Of a stretch of 8,279 bases of DNA, positions 455 through 8,042 are shown piece by piece. The position numbers were made by a program, and so were the translations under genes. This DNA is from an uncultured Clostridia bacterium (lineage in GTDB: Bacteria > Bacillota > Clostridia > Monoglobales > Monoglobaceae): positions 1 to 8,279 of the forward strand of contig CAMCUJ010000049.1 of assembly GCA_945878965.1 (NCBI GenBank), given 5' to 3'. The notes beneath the pieces are model-generated. The model ran no database searches. It saw only the letters and a program-made list of their open reading frames with translations, and had not been told where the DNA came from. Every line of letters starts with the position of its first letter. The first letter of the stretch is position 1.

Positions 455-2077
455 TTAACAGCCTCCGTTTTTCTTAAGCTTCATAATTATCAGCTTAATT
501 ATTTTCTGCAGCTGATTACGGCATCTTATATATTCATCAAGGTTATTTCCGTATGGATCTTCAACACTTATATCAAGGTCAATATACTTTGCAACAGTCA
601 TAATTTTCTTTGAATGTTCGGGAACAACTGTATTTAAAAATTCAGTATGCTCCTCAGTCATAGTAAGTATCAAATCCGCCTGAGAAAGCATTGTTCTTGT
701 AATCTGTCTTGATTTATGCTTACTTATGTCAAGACCTATTTCACGCATAGCCTTCTCCGAATTTTCACTTACAGGCAAATTATTATAAGCATAAGTTCCG
801 GCAGATGACGCACGAAACGGAATACCTTCTTTTTCAGCCTCAGCGTTAAAAATCCCCTCAGCCATAGGGCTTCTGCAAGTATTTCCGGTACATATAAACA
901 ATATGGTCTTAAGCTCTTCTTCCGAATTATTTTCCGCTTTTTCCTCGTCAATAATCTCAGTAATTGAATTTTCATTAACTGCCGCTGCTATATTGTCAGA
1001 CTCTGAAATTTTCTCAGCTTGAGCAGTTACCGCAGCTTCATTTAAATCAATAATATTTCCGCCCGCCGCCTTATAAAGTCTGTTTTGAACAGCCCTCCAT
1101 TCACCGATATCGGAAATTTCGGGAGCATATATAATATCAACATCCATATCATCAAGTTCTCTAAGTGAATTAAACAAATTCGACATAACCTCACTTGAAT
1201 CAGTAAGACTTCCAAATGATACAGTAGTACATAAATCCGAAAATTCAGCCACGTTCTCCTTAAAAGTGAGAACGGAAATCTTCTTTTCAGCACTATCGTT
1301 AAGCTTTTCATCTATTTCATTCTTAATGTATTCCTTAATCTGAGGCTTACTTCCCTTAAGAATTATAACCTCAGCCTTTGGTGCATAATGCTTATATTTC
1401 ATTCCCGGTGACATAGGCGTCTGATTATCACTAAGCTCTGATGAACCGACAACGACCTCGCTTAAAAGTGTCTGAATTTTTTCAAGCGTGATTTTTCCCG
1501 GACGAAGTAAAACAGGTGTATCACCGCTTACATCAAGAACTGTAGACTCAACACCAACCTCGCAGGATTCACCCTTAATCATTGCGTCAACACGACCGTT
1601 TAAATCCTCATATGAATGAGAGAATCTTGTAGGACTCGGTTTTCCCGAAAGATTGGCACTTGGTGCCGCAATAGGAACTCCTGCCTTTTCAATAAGCTCG
1701 TACGCTGTATTGCTGCTCGGAAATCTTACCGCAACAGTTGAAAGTCCGGCAGTTACATTATTTGGTATATTAGCTTTCTTCTTGAATATCAGCGTAAGAG
1801 GACCGGGCCAGAATTTATCCATAAGCTTTTTTGCATCGTCGCTTATATTTTCCGCTATATCATCAAGCATTTCAATGCTTGAAATATGTACGATAAGCGG
1901 ATTATCGGATGGTCTTCCCTTTGCCTCAAATATCTTTTTAACCGCATTTTCGTCAAGTGCATTCGCACCAAGACCATATACGGTTTCTGTAGGAAAGACC
2001 ACCGTCTTTCCCGACTTTATGTACTCTGCCGCAGTTTCAATTCCCTCAGCTGTATTTGTAAGAATTTTAGTAATCAT
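455..2077 (-). CDS. sua5-ywlE: Fusion of threonylcarbamoyl-AMP synthase (Sua5/YwlC) with YwlE-like low-molecular-weight phosphatase
   Basis: 540 residues in one uninterrupted frame. Residues about 10-205 are a YrdC domain, with PTETVYGLG (29-37), KGRPSDNPL (53-61) and APSANLSG (138-145). This domain makes threonylcarbamoyl-AMP from threonine, bicarbonate and ATP, the first step of t6A tRNA modification. SPGMKYKHYAP (223-233) is the linker typical of Sua5, and a Sua5 domain runs to about 346, including NRLYKAAGG (332-340). An acidic, low-complexity linker (about 350-388) leads to a low-molecular-weight phosphatase domain (390-535) with the CX5R loop CTGNTCRS (Cys396, Arg402) and the general-acid Asp of EDPYGN (Asp507). 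Thr400 sits where YwlE of Bacillus has the threonine that favours phospho-arginine, while tyrosine phosphatases usually have Ile. The protein is therefore probably a protein-arginine phosphatase rather than a tyrosine phosphatase (inference). In Bacillus the two activities are separate nearby genes (ywlC, ywlE). ATG at 2077 follows AGAAGGTGAT by 6 nt. Confidence 0.93.
   Translation of the reverse strand: MITKILTNTAEGIETAAEYIKSGKTVVFPTETVYGLGANALDENAVKKIFEAKGRPSDNPLIVHISSIEMLDDIAENISDDAKKLMDKFWPGPLTLIFKKKANIPNNVTAGLSTVAVRFPSSNTAYELIEKAGVPIAAPSANLSGKPSPTRFSHSYEDLNGRVDAMIKGESCEVGVESTVLDVSGDTPVLLRPGKITLEKIQTLLSEVVVGSSELSDNQTPMSPGMKYKHYAPKAEVIILKGSKPQIKEYIKNEIDEKLNDSAEKKISVLTFKENVAEFSDLCTTVSFGSLTDSSEVMSNLFNSLRELDDMDVDIIYAPEISDIGEWRAVQNRLYKAAGGNIIDLNEAAVTAQAEKISESDNIAAAVNENSITEIIDEEKAENNSEEELKTILFICTGNTCRSPMAEGIFNAEAEKEGIPFRASSAGTYAYNNLPVSENSEKAMREIGLDISKHKSRQITRTMLSQADLILTMTEEHTEFLNTVVPEHSKKIMTVAKYIDLDISVEDPYGNNLDEYIRCRNQLQKIIKLIIMKLKKNGGC
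462..466 (-). promoter_or_regulatory. Ribosome binding site of rimI, supporting a TTG start
   Basis: GGAGG on the minus strand lies inside the last codons of the upstream fusion gene, 7 nt before TTG at 454. It is the main evidence for the non-ATG start, since no ATG, GTG or other TTG occurs in frame between the upstream stop codon and codon 35. Confidence 0.75.
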
Positions 2078-2588: not shown

Positions 2589-3668
2589 TCAATTTTCTTC
2601 TGCCTGCATTTTAAGTTTTTCGCTTTGGTCGGTAGTAATAAGCGCATCGATAATTTCATCAATATCACCGTTCATTATTGATTCAAGCTTATATAAAGTA
2701 AGACCTATTCTATGGTCTGTAACTCTGCCTTGAGGGAAATTATATGTTCTTATTCTCTCACTTCTGTCGCCTGTTCCTACCTGACTCTTTCTGTCCGCCG
2801 CAATCTTGCTCTGCTGTTCTCTCTGCTTTATATCATAAAGCTTTGAACGCAGCATCTTCATCGCCGCATCTCTGTTCTTGTGCTGTGAACGCTCGTCTTG
2901 ACACGTAACAACTATTCCCGACGGAATGTGTGTTATACGTATTGCCGATTCGGTCTTATTAATATGCTGACCTCCGGCTCCGCTCGCTCTGTAGGTATCT
3001 ATCTCCAAGTCCTCAGGATTAATTTCAATCTCTACATCTTCAACCTCAGGAAGCACCGCAACAGTTACGGTTGATGTGTGTATTCTTCCTCCGGACTCTG
3101 TTTCGGGTATTCTCTGAACTCTGTGAACTCCGCTTTCAAACTTTAATCTGCTGTAGGCACCATGACCGCTTATCATAAACGAAACTTCCTTGACTCCGCC
3201 TATTCCTATCTCACTAAGACTCAAAACCTCTGTCTTCCAACGCTTTGACTCAGCATACATCGAATACAGTCTAAACATACTGTTCGCAAATAACGCCGCT
3301 TCATCTCCGCCGGCTCCGCTTCGTATCTCGACTATAACGTTCTTGTCATCGTTTGGATCTTTCGGAAGAAGCAATATCTTAAGCTCTTCCTCTATCCTTT
3401 CGATATTAGCCTTTGCCTCAAGTGACTCCTCCATTGCCATATCCTTAAAATCCTTATCGGCTGTGGGGTCATTCATTATCTCTTTGGCTTCGTCTATTAC
3501 ATTCTTGTTTGATTTGTATTCCTTATACTTTTCAACAATAGGCGTCATATCCGAATGCTCCTTGCAAAGCTTTCGCCATAACTCCTGATTGGCTATAACC
3601 TCAGGGTCACTGATTTTTGCCGCCAATTCCTCGTGCTGCTTTTCTATGAACGATAATTTATCAAACAT
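2589..3668 (-). CDS. prfA: Peptide chain release factor 1 (RF1)
   Basis: RF1 reads UAA and UAG in the ribosomal A site and triggers release of the finished protein. The 359-residue length is typical. The stop-recognition tripeptide is PET at 188-190, the RF1-type PxT (RF2 has SPF). The catalytic GGQ is at 232-234 in [13 protein letters not shown], and its glutamine is normally methylated by PrmC. The C-terminal [20 protein letters not shown] (299-318) is diagnostic for RF1. Residues 1-100 form the charged helical domain 1. ATG at 3668 has AAGGAG 6 nt upstream. The gene starts 51 nt after prfB with no terminator between, so co-transcription is likely. It ends in TGA, a codon that only RF2 reads. 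The segment around GGQ is almost the same at DNA level as in prfB (see findings). Confidence 0.97.
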
Positions 3669-3719: not shown

Positions 3720-4839
3720 TTATTTCTCAATCTCGCCGCGGCTGACTGCTGTCAAATAAGCATTTATAAAATCGTCTAAATCTCCGTCCATAACAGCACC
3801 CGTATTTCCCACTTCATAATTGGTTCTGTGATCTTTAACCATACTGTAAGGATGGAACACATACGAACGTATCTGACTTCCCCAGCCTATATCAAGCTGA
3901 ACACCCTTTAAATCCTCAATCTTTTCCTTATGCTCACGCTCTGCAATTTCTATAAGCTTAGATTTAAGCATTTTCATAGCCGTTGCACGGTTCTTATGCT
4001 GCGAACGCTCATTCTGACAGGTTACAACAAGTCCCGTCGGAATATGAGTTATACGAATTGCAGACTCGGTCTTATTAATGTGCTGACCTCCGGCTCCGCT
4101 TGCTCTGTAGGTATCAACCTTTAAATCCTCAGGGTTGATATCCACCTCTATATCGTCGTCAATCTCGGGAACTACATCAAGCGACGCAAACGAAGTATGA
4201 CGTCTGCCCGATGAATCAAACGGCGAAATTCTGACAAGCCTGTGAACACCCTTTTCACATTTTGCGTAGCCGTAAGCGTTAAGTCCTTCAATTCTGAAGG
4301 TTACACTCTTAATTCCCGCCTCGTCACCTGCAAGATAGTCCATAGTTTCGGTCTTATAGCCTCTTCTTTCTGCCCATCTTGTATACATTCTGTAAAGCAT
4401 CTCGCACCAATCCTGAGCCTCAGTTCCTCCGGCTCCGGCATGGAGTGTAAGAATTGCATTATTCTTATCATACTGTCCCGAAAGAAGCGTTTCAAGCTGC
4501 ATATTTTCAAGGCTCTTTGAAAGTTCTTTGTATCCGCTCTTTATCTCATCCAAAACGCTCTCGTCATCCTCGTCAATTGCAAGTGCCACAAGTGTGGTTA
4601 AGTCCTCCCATTCGGTATAAAGCGAATTGTATCTCTCTATTTTATCCTTTAAACCCTTAAGCTTCTGAAGTATACTGCCAGCCTTTTCCATATCGTCATA
4701 AAAGTCCGGCTTTACAGTTTCCTCTTCAAGCTCCTTTATTTCAAGCTCTGTTTTTTCTATGTTAAAGTGAATCCCTCAAATCAGTAATATCCTTCTTCAT
4801 ATTTTCAAGCTCTATCTTATATTCGTCAAATTCTATCAC
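3720..4839 (-). CDS. prfB: Peptide chain release factor 2 (RF2), made by programmed +1 frameshift
   Basis: RF2 reads UAA and UGA. The gene is in two frames. Frame one starts at GTG (4839-4837), runs 25 codons ([12 protein letters not shown]..., ending LRDSL) and meets TAA at 4764-4762. A +1 shift at CTT continues with AAC (4763-4761) into the long frame that ends with TAA at 3722-3720. The joined protein has 372 residues, with SPF at 205-207 and GGQ at 250-252, the same numbers as E. coli RF2, which supports both the start and the shift. Residue 246 is Ala, as in most RF2s (E. coli K-12 has Thr). [17 protein letters not shown] near the C-terminus is RF2-specific. A caller without frameshift logic would start at ATG 4691 and lose 49 residues of domain 1. 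GTG at 4839 is preceded by AAGGAAG with 7 nt spacing. No clear promoter was found upstream, so prfB may be read from secA through the repeat element or from an unseen promoter. Confidence 0.95.
4761..4776 (-). promoter_or_regulatory. Programmed +1 frameshift signal of prfB with UAA as the in-frame stop
   Basis: Minus-strand sequence AGG GAU UCA CUU UAA C. The parts match the E. coli site AGG GGG UAU CUU UGA C: a Shine-Dalgarno-like AGG begins three codons before CUU, CUU lets peptidyl-tRNA(Leu) slip onto UUU, and the stop is followed by C, a weak termination context. Two differences stand out. The stop is UAA, not UGA, and the internal Shine-Dalgarno is AGGGAU rather than AGGGGG. UAA is read by both release factors, so the switch would sense RF1 plus RF2 rather than RF2 alone (inference). 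Confidence 0.9.
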
Positions 4840-4946: not shown

Positions 4947-5009
4947 CCTGTCGGCGCCAGCCGACCGAGAATACTTAATTTGCCACCGATAGGCGAGCAA
5001 GGTAGGGCG
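4947..5009. repeat. Direct repeat copy A flanking the hairpin array
   Basis: This 63-bp stretch matches 5218-5280 in the same orientation, with about 12 differences and no gaps. It starts with CCTGTCGGCG, contains GTCGGC/GCCGAC (4950-4965, loop GCCA), then a second hairpin TTGC-CACC/GGCG-A-GCAA around GATA (4980-5000) with one mismatch, then GGTAGGGCG. Confidence 0.8.
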
Positions 5010-5217: not shown

Positions 5218-5280
5218 CCTGTCGGCGTCAGCCGACCGACACTGCTTCATTTGCCGGCGATAGCCGAGCAAGGTGAAGTG
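5218..5280. repeat. Direct repeat copy B flanking the hairpin array
   Basis: This is the partner of 4947-5009, 271 bp away. It contains GTCGGC/GCCGAC (5221-5236, loop GTCA) and TTGC-CGGC/GCCG-A-GCAA around GATA (5251-5271), which is fully paired apart from the bulged A. It ends next to the secA stop codon. Confidence 0.8.
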
Positions 5281-5282
5281 CC

Positions 5283-8042
5283 TCAGGCACCGTTCTCCTT
5301 ATCCATACAGCAGTTCTTATATTTCTTTCCGCTTCCGCATGGACACGGCTCATTTCTGCCTATCTTTTTATCCTTTACAATCGGCTTTTTAACAGCAGTT
5401 CCATCACCGCCCGCATTTTCAGATATCGGCTTCGCTACCTGTGTTCTCTTAATCTCAGACTGCGGAATTATATGGAATAAATGCTTAACCGTTTCTTCCT
5501 TGATATCGTAAATCATTTCTTCAAACATATCCATAGCTTCAAACTTGTATTCAACTACCGGATCACGCTGTGCATAAGCACGAAGATTAATTCCCTGTCG
5601 CAGTTGCTCCATATTGTCGATGTGATCCATCCACTTTCTGTCTACAACCTGAAGAAGAATAATTCTCTCTATCTCACGGATATGCTCGCCGAACTGCTCC
5701 TCTTTATTAGCATAAAGACGCTCTGCGGTTTCAAGCAAACGCTCCTTTAGGCTCTCAATCGTCATATAGTCAAGCTCGCTGTCGTCAAATTCAAGCTCTT
5801 CCTTTGTAAAGGCTACAAATATGCTCTGGAAATGCTCAAGCATTGCCTCCCAGTTCCACTCATCGGCATGACTGCTGTCGCCCGAATGAAGTGTGATTAT
5901 ATGCTCGATAACGCTTCCCATCATATTTAGAATGTTCGCTCTTAAATCCGCTCCGTCAAGCACTTCGTTTCTCTGAGTATATATCATCTCTCTCTGCTGA
6001 TTGTTTACATCGTCATAGTTAAGAACGTGCTTTCTGATATCAAAGTTACGTCCCTCAACCCTTCTTTGTGCAGTTTCAATGGCATTTGAAATCATCTTGC
6101 TTTCAATAGCTTCATCCTCTTCAAAGCCGAATGTTTCCATAATTTTATTAATTCTGTCCGCAGCAAACAAACGCATAAGGTCGTCCTCAAGTGAAAGATA
6201 AAATCTTGATTTACCCTTATCTCCCTGACGTCCCGCACGTCCTCTTAACTGATTATCTATACGTCGGCTCTCGTGACGCTCCGTACCCATTATATAAAGT
6301 CCGCCTGCCTCAAGAACCTCCGCCTGCTCCGGTTCAACCTCTGCCTTATACTTATTATTAAGCTCCTTGAACTTTTCTCTTGCCTCTAAAATTTCCTCAT
6401 CATCAGTATCAGCAAAGCCCGTAGCCTCATTTATAAGCTTAGGTGTGTAGCCAAGCCTCTCCATTTCCTTTTTTGCAAGGAACTCAGCATTACCGCCAAG
6501 AACTATATCGGTACCACGTCCTGCCATATTTGTGGCAATTGTAACCGCACCCTTTTTACCTGCCTGTGCTACAATTTCTGCTTCTTTTTCGTGCATCTTA
6601 GCGTTAAGAACATTGTGCTTTATTCCCTTTTTCTTAAGCATACCGCTCAAAATCTCGGATTTCTCTATAGATACCGTACCTATAAGAACCGGCTGACCCT
6701 TTTCGTGTACCTCAATTACATCATTTATTACAGCATTGAATTTAGCCTTTTCACTCTTGTAAATTACATCAGGCAAATCCTCTCTCTGTATAGGCTTGTT
6801 TGTAGGTATTACAATTACATCAAGCTTGTAAATCTCCTGGAATTCGTCCTCCTCAGTCTGCGCAGTACCTGTCATACCGGAAAGCTTATCATAAAGTCTG
6901 AAATAATTCTGAAATGTTATTGTAGCCAAGGTCTTGCTCTCATTTTCAACCTTAACATTTTCCTTTGCCTCAATAGCCTGATGAAGTCCGTCGTTATAAC
7001 GTCTTCCGAACATCAAACGTCCCGTGAACTCGTCAACAATTATTATCTGACCGTCTTTTATAACGTATTCTCTATCCTTCTTCATAACGCCGTTGGCTTT
7101 GATTGCCTGATTAATATGGTGCGAAAGCGTCATATTAGCCGGATCCGTAAGGTTTTCGATATTGAACGCAAGCTCCGCCTTCTTCACACCCGAGGCTGTA
7201 AGAATTGCAGTCTTAGCCTTTTCATCAATTATATAATCAACATCACCGTAAAGCTCTTCATGGTCTTCCTTAGACTCCGTTTCTACAACAACGCGGCTTG
7301 TAAGAGTCTTTGCAAATCTGTCAGCCAAGGTATAAAGTGATGTGGACTTATCACCCTGTCCCGAAATTATAAGCGGTGTTCTCGCTTCGTCAATCAAAAT
7401 ACTGTCAACCTCATCAACAATTGCATATGAATGACCTCTCTGAACCTTTTGGTCTTTGTATATAACCATATTATCTCTAAGATAGTCAAATCCCATCTCA
7501 TTATTTGTTCCGTATGTGATATCGGCATTATAAGCAATACGTCTTTGCTCATTCTCCATATCGTGAACTATAAGTCCTACGCTAAGACCCATAAAGTTGT
7601 AAAGCTTGCCCATCCACTCACTGTCACGCTTTGCAAGATAATCATTTACAGTTACTATATGAACACCTTTTCCGGAAAGTGCATTAAGATACGCCGGAAG
7701 AGTCGCAACCAAGGTCTTACCTTCACCGGTTTTCATCTCGGCAATTCTACCCTGATGTAAAACTATACCGCCAAGTATCTGTACCGGGAAATGCTTCATT
7801 CCAAGAACTCTGAAGGATGCCTCCCTTGCTGCGGCAAATGCCTCGGGCAAAATGTCATCAAGCGTTTCTCCGTTCTTTAATCTTTCCTTAAACATCGGAG
7901 TCATCGCTTTAAGCTCTGAATCTGTCTTTTTCTCCATTTCACCTTCAAGCGAAAGTACCTTGTCAACTATCGGTCTTATTCTTTTGAGCTCTCTGTCACT
8001 GTAAGTACCGATTATCTTCTCTATTACTCCTTTTATGCCCAT
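5283..8042 (-). CDS. secA: Preprotein translocase ATPase SecA
   Basis: SecA is the cytoplasmic motor that pushes unfolded preproteins through SecYEG using ATP. At 919 residues it is within the family range. Motifs in order: Walker A MKTGEGKT (103-110), DEVD (210-213), VDEFTGR (336-342), SGMTGTA (388-394), TNMAGRGTD (504-512), and the arginine-finger region [11 protein letters not shown] (598-608). The preprotein cross-linking domain lies between DEVD and VDEFTGR. A charged insert at about 530-570, before [15 protein letters not shown], is of a kind found in many SecAs. The C-terminal zinc-binding SEC-C motif is complete: CPC (900-902) and CC (911-912). The protein ends in a short tail, MDKENGA. 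ATG at 8042 has GGAGG 9 nt upstream and a sigma-A promoter about 100 nt upstream. The last two codons and the TGA stop form part of a hairpin that belongs to the downstream repeat element. Confidence 0.98.

What the first reader, a model, noticed from the sequence alone, without database searches (positions are those of the whole stretch)
4761..4776. prfB autoregulatory frameshift uses UAA instead of UGA
Most known prfB genes carry CUU UGA C so that scarcity of RF2, the only UGA reader here, favours the +1 shift. This one reads CUU UAA C, with the Shine-Dalgarno-like AGG at the same distance. Because UAA is also read by RF1, the feedback should respond to the pool of both factors, and frameshifting must compete with two terminators. 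The internal Shine-Dalgarno is also weaker (AGGGAU). The joined protein keeps exact RF2 numbering for SPF and GGQ, so a sequencing error is unlikely to explain the pattern.
Basis: partly seen in the sequence, partly recalled or inferred. Interest (0 to 1): 0.75.

Follow-up and report, generated by a model that had tools for sequence, protein, structure and literature searches.

The report
RF2 gene switched to RF1's stop codon
In this bacterium, and in every relative of its family whose gene could be read, the internal stop that is predicted to throttle production of the termination factor RF2 is UAA or UAG instead of the usual UGA, and because UAG is read only by the partner factor RF1, the relatives that carry it would likely set RF2 production by the amount of RF1 rather than of RF2 itself.

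Summary
Confirmed: prfB (minus strand) reads AGG GAU UCA CUU UAA C at 4776-4761; codon 26 is UAA and RF2 continues in the +1 frame. It is not a base error: in the window's family 34 of 38 genomes hold the site, 29 UAA, 5 UAG, 0 UGA.

UAA alone is not new: Prince et al. 2025 (PMC12421855) give TAA in 1.4% of 8,164 motif-bearing genomes, call it not fixed in clades, and report no TAG. Both latter statements fail here: UAA/UAG is fixed in this family, and UAG, read only by RF1, is in 17 genomes found here, needing 7 changes on an RF2 tree.

Slippery codon, stimulator and weak-context C are kept; RF1 is over its cut-off in all 16 UAG genomes searched for it; UGA remains an ordinary stop. In E. coli a UAG version of the site reports RF1 activity (PMC2680264).

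Best reading: the sensor moved from RF2 (UGA) to RF1+RF2 (UAA) to RF1 (UAG). Where prfA follows prfB closely, RF1 might regulate itself. Sequence facts are shown; regulation is inferred.

The parts
4761..4776 (-). prfB +1 frameshift cassette AGG GAT TCA CTT TAA C
   Evidence: read directly; same string or its UAG form at prfB in 34 of 38 family genomes, one with GGT for GAT
4774..4776 (-). AGG, start of the SD-like stimulator, 12 nt before the stop
   Evidence: sequence; role from E. coli work, not tested here
4764..4767 (-). slippery CTT T
   Evidence: sequence; CTT in all 126 fetched sites
4762..4764 (-). sensing stop codon TAA, codon 26
   Evidence: sequence; UAA in 29 and UAG in 5 of 34 family sites
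4761..4761 (-). C after the stop (weak termination context)
   Evidence: C in 125 of 126 fetched sites
4762..4839 (-). prfB ORF1, GTG start to TAA, 25 sense codons
   Evidence: ribosome-binding-like AAAGGAAG at 4854-4847
3720..4763 (-). prfB ORF2 in the +1 frame, body of RF2, 347 codons and stop
   Evidence: TIGR00020, 534.9 bits, cut-off 370
2589..3668 (-). prfA (RF1), 51 nt behind prfB
   Evidence: ORF list, start and spacing; matches TIGR00020 below its cut-off; named prfA from its PxT motif and sequence, TIGR00019 was not run on the window
5283..8042 (-). secA, upstream neighbour
   Evidence: ORF list; named by recall of the sequence

Best explanation
The window holds a prfB programmed +1 frameshift site whose sensing stop is UAA throughout its family and UAG in a sister genus instead of UGA, so that control of RF2 synthesis has likely passed from RF2 alone to RF1 plus RF2 and then to RF1. 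Shown: the site, its clade-wide UAA/UAG state, repeated UAG on the RF2 tree with the other frameshift elements kept, and RF1 genes over the cut-off in the UAG genomes searched. Inferred: ribosomes pause at the stop when its release factor is scarce, tRNA-Leu slips from CUU to UUU, and full RF2 is made; with UAA either factor would end translation, with UAG only RF1 would. RF2 supply would then rise when RF1 (or total UAA-reading capacity) falls. Where prfA directly follows prfB, a shift could raise RF1 too.
For: Family: 34 of 38 genomes with the site, 29 UAA, 5 UAG, 0 UGA. Order outside the family: 7 UGA, 3 UAA, 1 fused, 2 unread, of 13. All 16 stretches of an exact UAG scan of genome contigs are prfB, and one more UAG prfB lies in a phylum sample. 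UAG needs 7 changes on the tree of 131 RF2s; one UAG clade is rejected on the 126-row tree (AU p 2.8e-37). Motif codons are conserved as DNA in the family (29 of 30 v 1 of 149 columns). RF1 over cut-off in all 16 UAG genomes searched; RF2 keeps SPF in all 16; UGA is an ordinary stop. E. coli: UAGA and UAGU versions of this window follow RF1 activity (PMC2680264, passages).
Against: No expression data from any of these organisms. The E. coli assay used UAGA and UAGU, not UAGC. No clean correlate explains the switch: tandem prfA also occurs with UGA (10 genomes) and is absent in 9 of 16 UAG genomes; stop usage does not separate the groups after allowing for kinship. Loss of sensing with a merely leaky site is not excluded. 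Motif invariance in 11 of the 16 UAG genomes is partly by construction, since the exact scan found them. In G809 the RF1 match runs over one TGA, though its open frame has 359 codons.
Confidence: 0.7

Rival explanations
1. The sensor has relaxed: any stop after CUU with a C behind it lets a fixed share of ribosomes shift, RF2 output is adequate whatever the factor levels, and UGA to UAA to UAG is near-neutral drift.
For: UAA and UAG are scattered in Lachnospiraceae-like genomes. Lim et al. 2026 (PMC13245932, abstract) report that removing the regulation in a Pseudomonas had no detectable fitness effect. Non-UGA sites go with higher UGA use near prfB there (0.31 v 0.19, p 0.007), as relaxed RF2 control might.
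Against: Shift elements, including the weak-context C, stay conserved as DNA, where fusion by one base, seen in G047, would be the simple way out. UAG in E. coli does respond to RF1 (PMC2680264). The UGA-use difference is not supported by independent pairs.
Confidence: 0.22
2. RF2 of the UAG lineages has gained UAG reading, so the loop is still RF2 autoregulation.
For: RF2 alleles with more UAG reading can be engineered (passage of PMC13245932).
Against: SPF kept in all 16 UAG genomes, and the stretch round it matches that of UAA and UGA relatives; RF1 retained in all 16 searched. Positions outside that stretch were not examined.
Confidence: 0.05
3. Artefact: base errors, a broken gene, or stops read as sense.
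For: The window and most relatives are draft assemblies, many of them from metagenomes.
Against: Same bases in 29 and 5 separate family genomes; UAG also in records not titled MAG (Acetivibrio sp. MSJd-27, Clostridiales bacterium CHKCI001); RF2 lies in the +1 frame, so reading the stop as sense would not make it; UAA and UAG end ordinary long ORFs.
Confidence: 0.02

Closest known systems
prfB (RF2) autoregulatory +1 frameshift of E. coli and most bacteria, AGG GGG UAU CUU UGA C
   Same: Place (codon 26), slippery CUU U, upstream SD-like element at the same distance, C after the stop, RF2 in the +1 frame.
   Different: Stop is UAA (window) or UAG (relatives) instead of UGA; stimulator AGGGAUUCA, as in UGA-bearing Clostridia fetched here.
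TAA variants of the prfB motif, Prince et al. 2025 (PMC12421855)
   Same: UAA as the internal stop; 1.4% of 8,164 motif genomes.
   Different: There described as not fixed in clades and never TAG; here fixed as UAA/UAG in 34 of 34 readable family genomes, with UAG in 17 genomes in all.
Engineered UAG versions of the E. coli RF2 window used to assay RF1 (PMC2680264, which names Curran and Yarus 1989 and Poole et al. 1995; those two not read)
   Same: CUU UAG shifts +1 in competition with RF1.
   Different: Laboratory constructs with UAGA or UAGU; here natural and UAGC.
Proposed RF1 autocontrol by readthrough of the UAGC stop of hemA upstream of prfA (Elliott 1989, as told in PMC2680264)
   Same: UAGC as a possible sensor of RF1 near prfA.
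   Different: There readthrough of hemA was proposed; here a frameshift in prfB, with prfA downstream in 7 of 16 fetched UAG genomes.

Membership tests
prfB programmed +1 frameshift cassette | short ORF1 and RF2 body in the +1 frame | tested here: met
   RF2 model 534.9 bits
prfB programmed +1 frameshift cassette | slippery CTT T directly before the stop | tested here: met
   window and all 126 fetched sites
prfB programmed +1 frameshift cassette | SD-like stimulator at fixed distance | tested here: met
   AGG 12 nt before the stop; AGGG or GGGG in 126 of 126 fetched sites (the script asked for AGG or GGG there); weaker than AGGGGG; decayed in G049
prfB programmed +1 frameshift cassette | C after the stop | tested here: met
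   window; 125 of 126
prfB programmed +1 frameshift cassette | stop readable by RF2 | tested here: met
   window: UAA, which RF2 reads. For the UAG relatives the feature is not met (17 genomes)
prfB programmed +1 frameshift cassette | stop specific to RF2 (UGA) | tested here: not met
   UAA in the window; 0 of 34 family sites UGA
prfB programmed +1 frameshift cassette | RF2 level controls the shift | not testable with these tools
   needs reporters or profiling

The most novel reading that the evidence does not exclude
In UAG lineages with prfA close behind prfB (TAATG overlap in G037 and G127, 2-nt gap in G034 and Acetivibrio sp. MSJd-27, 15 nt in the other three g9 genomes), the frameshift in the RF2 gene is an RF1 sensor that controls both genes: scarce RF1 lets ribosomes through prfB and on to prfA. 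This would be a natural RF1 autoregulation loop, built by capturing RF2's own autoregulatory device and reached by the path UGA, UAA, UAG.
Probability: 0.3. Interest if true: 0.87.

Novelty: new variant of a known kind. Interest (0 to 1): 0.74.

Why it matters
The prfB frameshift is the textbook case of translational autoregulation, and its near-universal UGA, with UAG never seen, has been used as the argument that it exists for RF2 autoregulation (PMC12421855). A family that has given up UGA, and repeated natural UAG versions, break that argument and supply ready-made natural experiments on what the site senses. They also offer a candidate for control of RF1, of which a 2021 paper knew no report (PMC8073009, passage).

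Tried and rejected
Idea that UAA/UAG goes with loss of UGA as a stop: rejected. UGA ends 12-35% of long ORFs in the UAA and UAG groups with more than 20 ORFs. Idea that high UGA demand drives the switch: suggestive in Lachnospiraceae-like genomes (24 non-UGA v 34 UGA genomes, means 0.31 v 0.19, Mann-Whitney p 0.007), but the independent-pairs test does not support it (median p 0.625), and it was measured on few genes near prfB.

Idea that tandem prfB-prfA drives the switch: not supported as a general rule. Tandem occurs with UGA too (UGA 10 tandem v 48 not; UAA 27 v 19; UAG 7 v 9; 6 unknown); the genomes were chosen by me and the tandem ones are mostly one order. Tight spacing is not special to UAG either: two UAA genomes (G001, G002) also have the TAATG overlap.

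Idea that the weak SD compensates for UAA: rejected, UGA relatives have the same string. Idea of an RF2 with relaxed specificity: no sign around SPF. The AU test for the nine Lachnospiraceae-like UAG rows did not finish and was not repeated. In the order of G076 (9 genomes) only G076 matched the motif pattern, so its sister state there is unknown.

Full report
WHAT IS THERE. The window is contig C49 of a draft genome of 1.52 Mb, 255 contigs and 79% completeness. On its minus strand lie secA (8042-5283), prfB and prfA (3668-2589). prfB begins with GTG at 4839 behind AAAGGAAG, runs 25 codons to AGG GAT TCA CTT, meets TAA at 4764-4762 followed by C, and RF2 continues in the +1 frame (AAC...) for 347 codons to 3720. 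The RF2 model TIGR00020 matches at 534.9 bits against a cut-off of 370.

IS IT REAL. The genus holds only this genome, so I went to the family: 38 genomes, of which 34 hold the cassette. 29 read CTT TAA C, 5 read CTT TAG C, none TGA (sequences). The four without a site are 68-79% complete; two show no TIGR00020 match and two only partial ones. The five UAG genomes form one genus code (g9). In the 30 family genomes with full-length ORF2 the codons AGG GAT TCA CTT are identical in 29, while only 1 of 149 ORF2 columns of invariant amino acid (M and W left out) uses a single codon. The bases themselves appear to be under selection, as a working frameshift site needs.

HOW OLD IS THE CHANGE. In the order (51 genomes) the 13 outside the family read: UGA in six genomes of f2 and one of f3 (UGAU); UAA in f5 and in both of f6, one with a decayed stimulator; fused in frame in f4; unread in two (G038, only a partial match in a fragmented assembly; G043, no match). 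So UAA is fixed in the window's family, and UGA, the usual state, is close by.

UAG ELSEWHERE. One exact scan of genome contigs for GAGGGATTCACTTTAGCNT gave 16 stretches, and all 16 are prfB with RF2 in the +1 frame. They are the five g9 genomes, a Clostridia bacterium (RGIG8497, the same contig as G127), Acetivibrio sp. MSJd-27 (G076), and nine Lachnospiraceae-like genomes including two Candidatus Fimimorpha and Clostridiales bacterium CHKCI001. In the class sample (391 genomes) G127, G076 (UAG) and G366, G400, G048, G081 (UAA) were met outside the family and confirmed as prfB. G127's family (6 genomes) otherwise reads UGA in four, with one unread. A phylum sample of 398 genomes gave three further prfB sites with UAA or UAG, all in one genus (g620): two UAA, one UAG; the other 24 loci besides the window's own were not prfB. 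On a quick tree of 131 RF2s (junction residues left out) UAG needs 7 changes. The nearest sampled sister is UAA for g9, for G811/G814, for G1186 and, with weak support, for G815. It is UGA for G127 and G076, and, with weak support, for the Fimimorpha group. On the 126-row tree one UAG clade is rejected (AU p 2.8e-37). TGA to TAG takes two base changes and TAA is the only stop between, so UGA, UAA, UAG is the likely path. In Lachnospiraceae-like f31 (397 genomes, 262 with a match; the match list was cut at about 150 rows) I counted by eye 18 listed genomes with AGGGATTCACTTTAAC and one with TAG. The 18, and G400, were confirmed as prfB.

WHAT IS KEPT. Of 126 fetched genomes (61 UGA, 49 UAA, 16 UAG; chosen, not random, and partly found by the motif itself) 125 have C after the stop and all have CTT. 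RF1 is over its cut-off, with an open frame of at least 359 codons, in all 16 UAG genomes (19 handles searched, three genomes named twice; in G809 the match runs over one TGA). G1186 was not searched for RF1. RF2 keeps SPF in all 16. UGA is still an ordinary stop: 12-35% of long ORFs in the UAA and UAG groups with more than 20 ORFs. So there is no sign of a changed code, and both factors are present.

HOW IT MOST LIKELY WORKS. Known from E. coli: scarcity of the factor that reads the stop lets tRNA-Leu slip from CUU to UUU, and full RF2 is made. What is sensed is set by the stop. UGA reports RF2, UAA would report RF1 and RF2 together, UAG would report RF1. That a UAG version of this window shifts and follows RF1 has been measured in E. 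coli: termination relative to frameshifting fell from 1.30 to 0.14-0.18 (UAGA) and from 1.42 to 0.06-0.16 (UAGU) in RF1 mutants (PMC2680264, passages). A review says the largest set of shift-site variants was tested with UAG (PMC5009743, passages). I infer, and have not shown, that in the window RF2 synthesis follows the pool of both factors and in UAG lineages follows RF1. In such cells RF2 would rise when RF1 falls, which would help to hold total UAA-reading capacity steady; UAA is the commonest stop in every group.

LINK TO prfA. prfA follows prfB in the window (51 nt), in all 30 family genomes judged, and in 44 of the 120 fetched genomes that could be judged. In tandem UAG genomes it is close: TAATG overlap in G037 and G127, 2 nt in G034 and G076, 15 nt in three others; the three UGA genomes of G127's family measured have 11-22 nt, but two UAA genomes (G001, G002) overlap as well. 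In the nine Lachnospiraceae-like UAG genomes prfA is not within the 5-6 kb read downstream. Coupled control of RF1 is therefore possible in some lineages only, and is offered as the bold reading.

WHAT IS KNOWN. Prince et al. 2025 (PMC12421855; abstract, first parts of the text and of the Results, Discussion and one Methods section read) took prfB genes as annotated in RefSeq representatives: 8,164 with the motif, 98.6% TGA, 1.4% TAA, no TAG, TAA not broadly fixed in clades. The window's UAA is therefore a known substitution. The UAG versions, and clade-wide fixation, go against that survey's statements. Because it relied on annotated genes, frameshifts with an unexpected stop may have been missed (inference). 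Seven library searches listed no paper whose title or shown abstract reports a natural UAG prfB site; most of the papers listed were not opened, and closed-access papers are not held. Lim et al. 2026 (PMC13245932; abstract and passages) treat presence or absence of the frameshift, not stop identity, in the passages I saw.

LIMITS.

Noticed in passing
window 2589-3668 and 3720-4763, and the same pair in relatives: prfA and prfB of one genome are more alike around GGQ (153 nt) than prfA is to relatives' prfB: in 30 family genomes the mean is 0.81 within v 0.74 between (own pair the best in 40%), which hints at gene conversion in the tandem pair.
   Followed up: partly
window 4947-5003 and 5218-5274: A 57-nt direct repeat, 86% alike, lies between secA and prfB, in a stretch rich in short inverted GTCGGC/GCCGAC words.
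   Followed up: no
window 455-2077 (-): One 540-aa ORF looks by eye like a TsaC/Sua5 domain joined to a low-molecular-weight phosphatase domain; no family search was run.
   Followed up: no
L037 (G047), L047 (G049), L046 (G046): In the same order G047 has the frame fused (frameshift lost), G049 keeps CTT TAA C with a decayed stimulator (GGTGAT), and G046 has UGA followed by T.
   Followed up: partly
L107-L125, RF1 genes of UAG genomes: RF1 of the g9 genomes and of MSJd-27 has an RF2-like GGQ context (GAGGQHVNKTE), while the Lachnospiraceae-like ones have GNGGQC or GNGGQS with NTTD.
   Followed up: no
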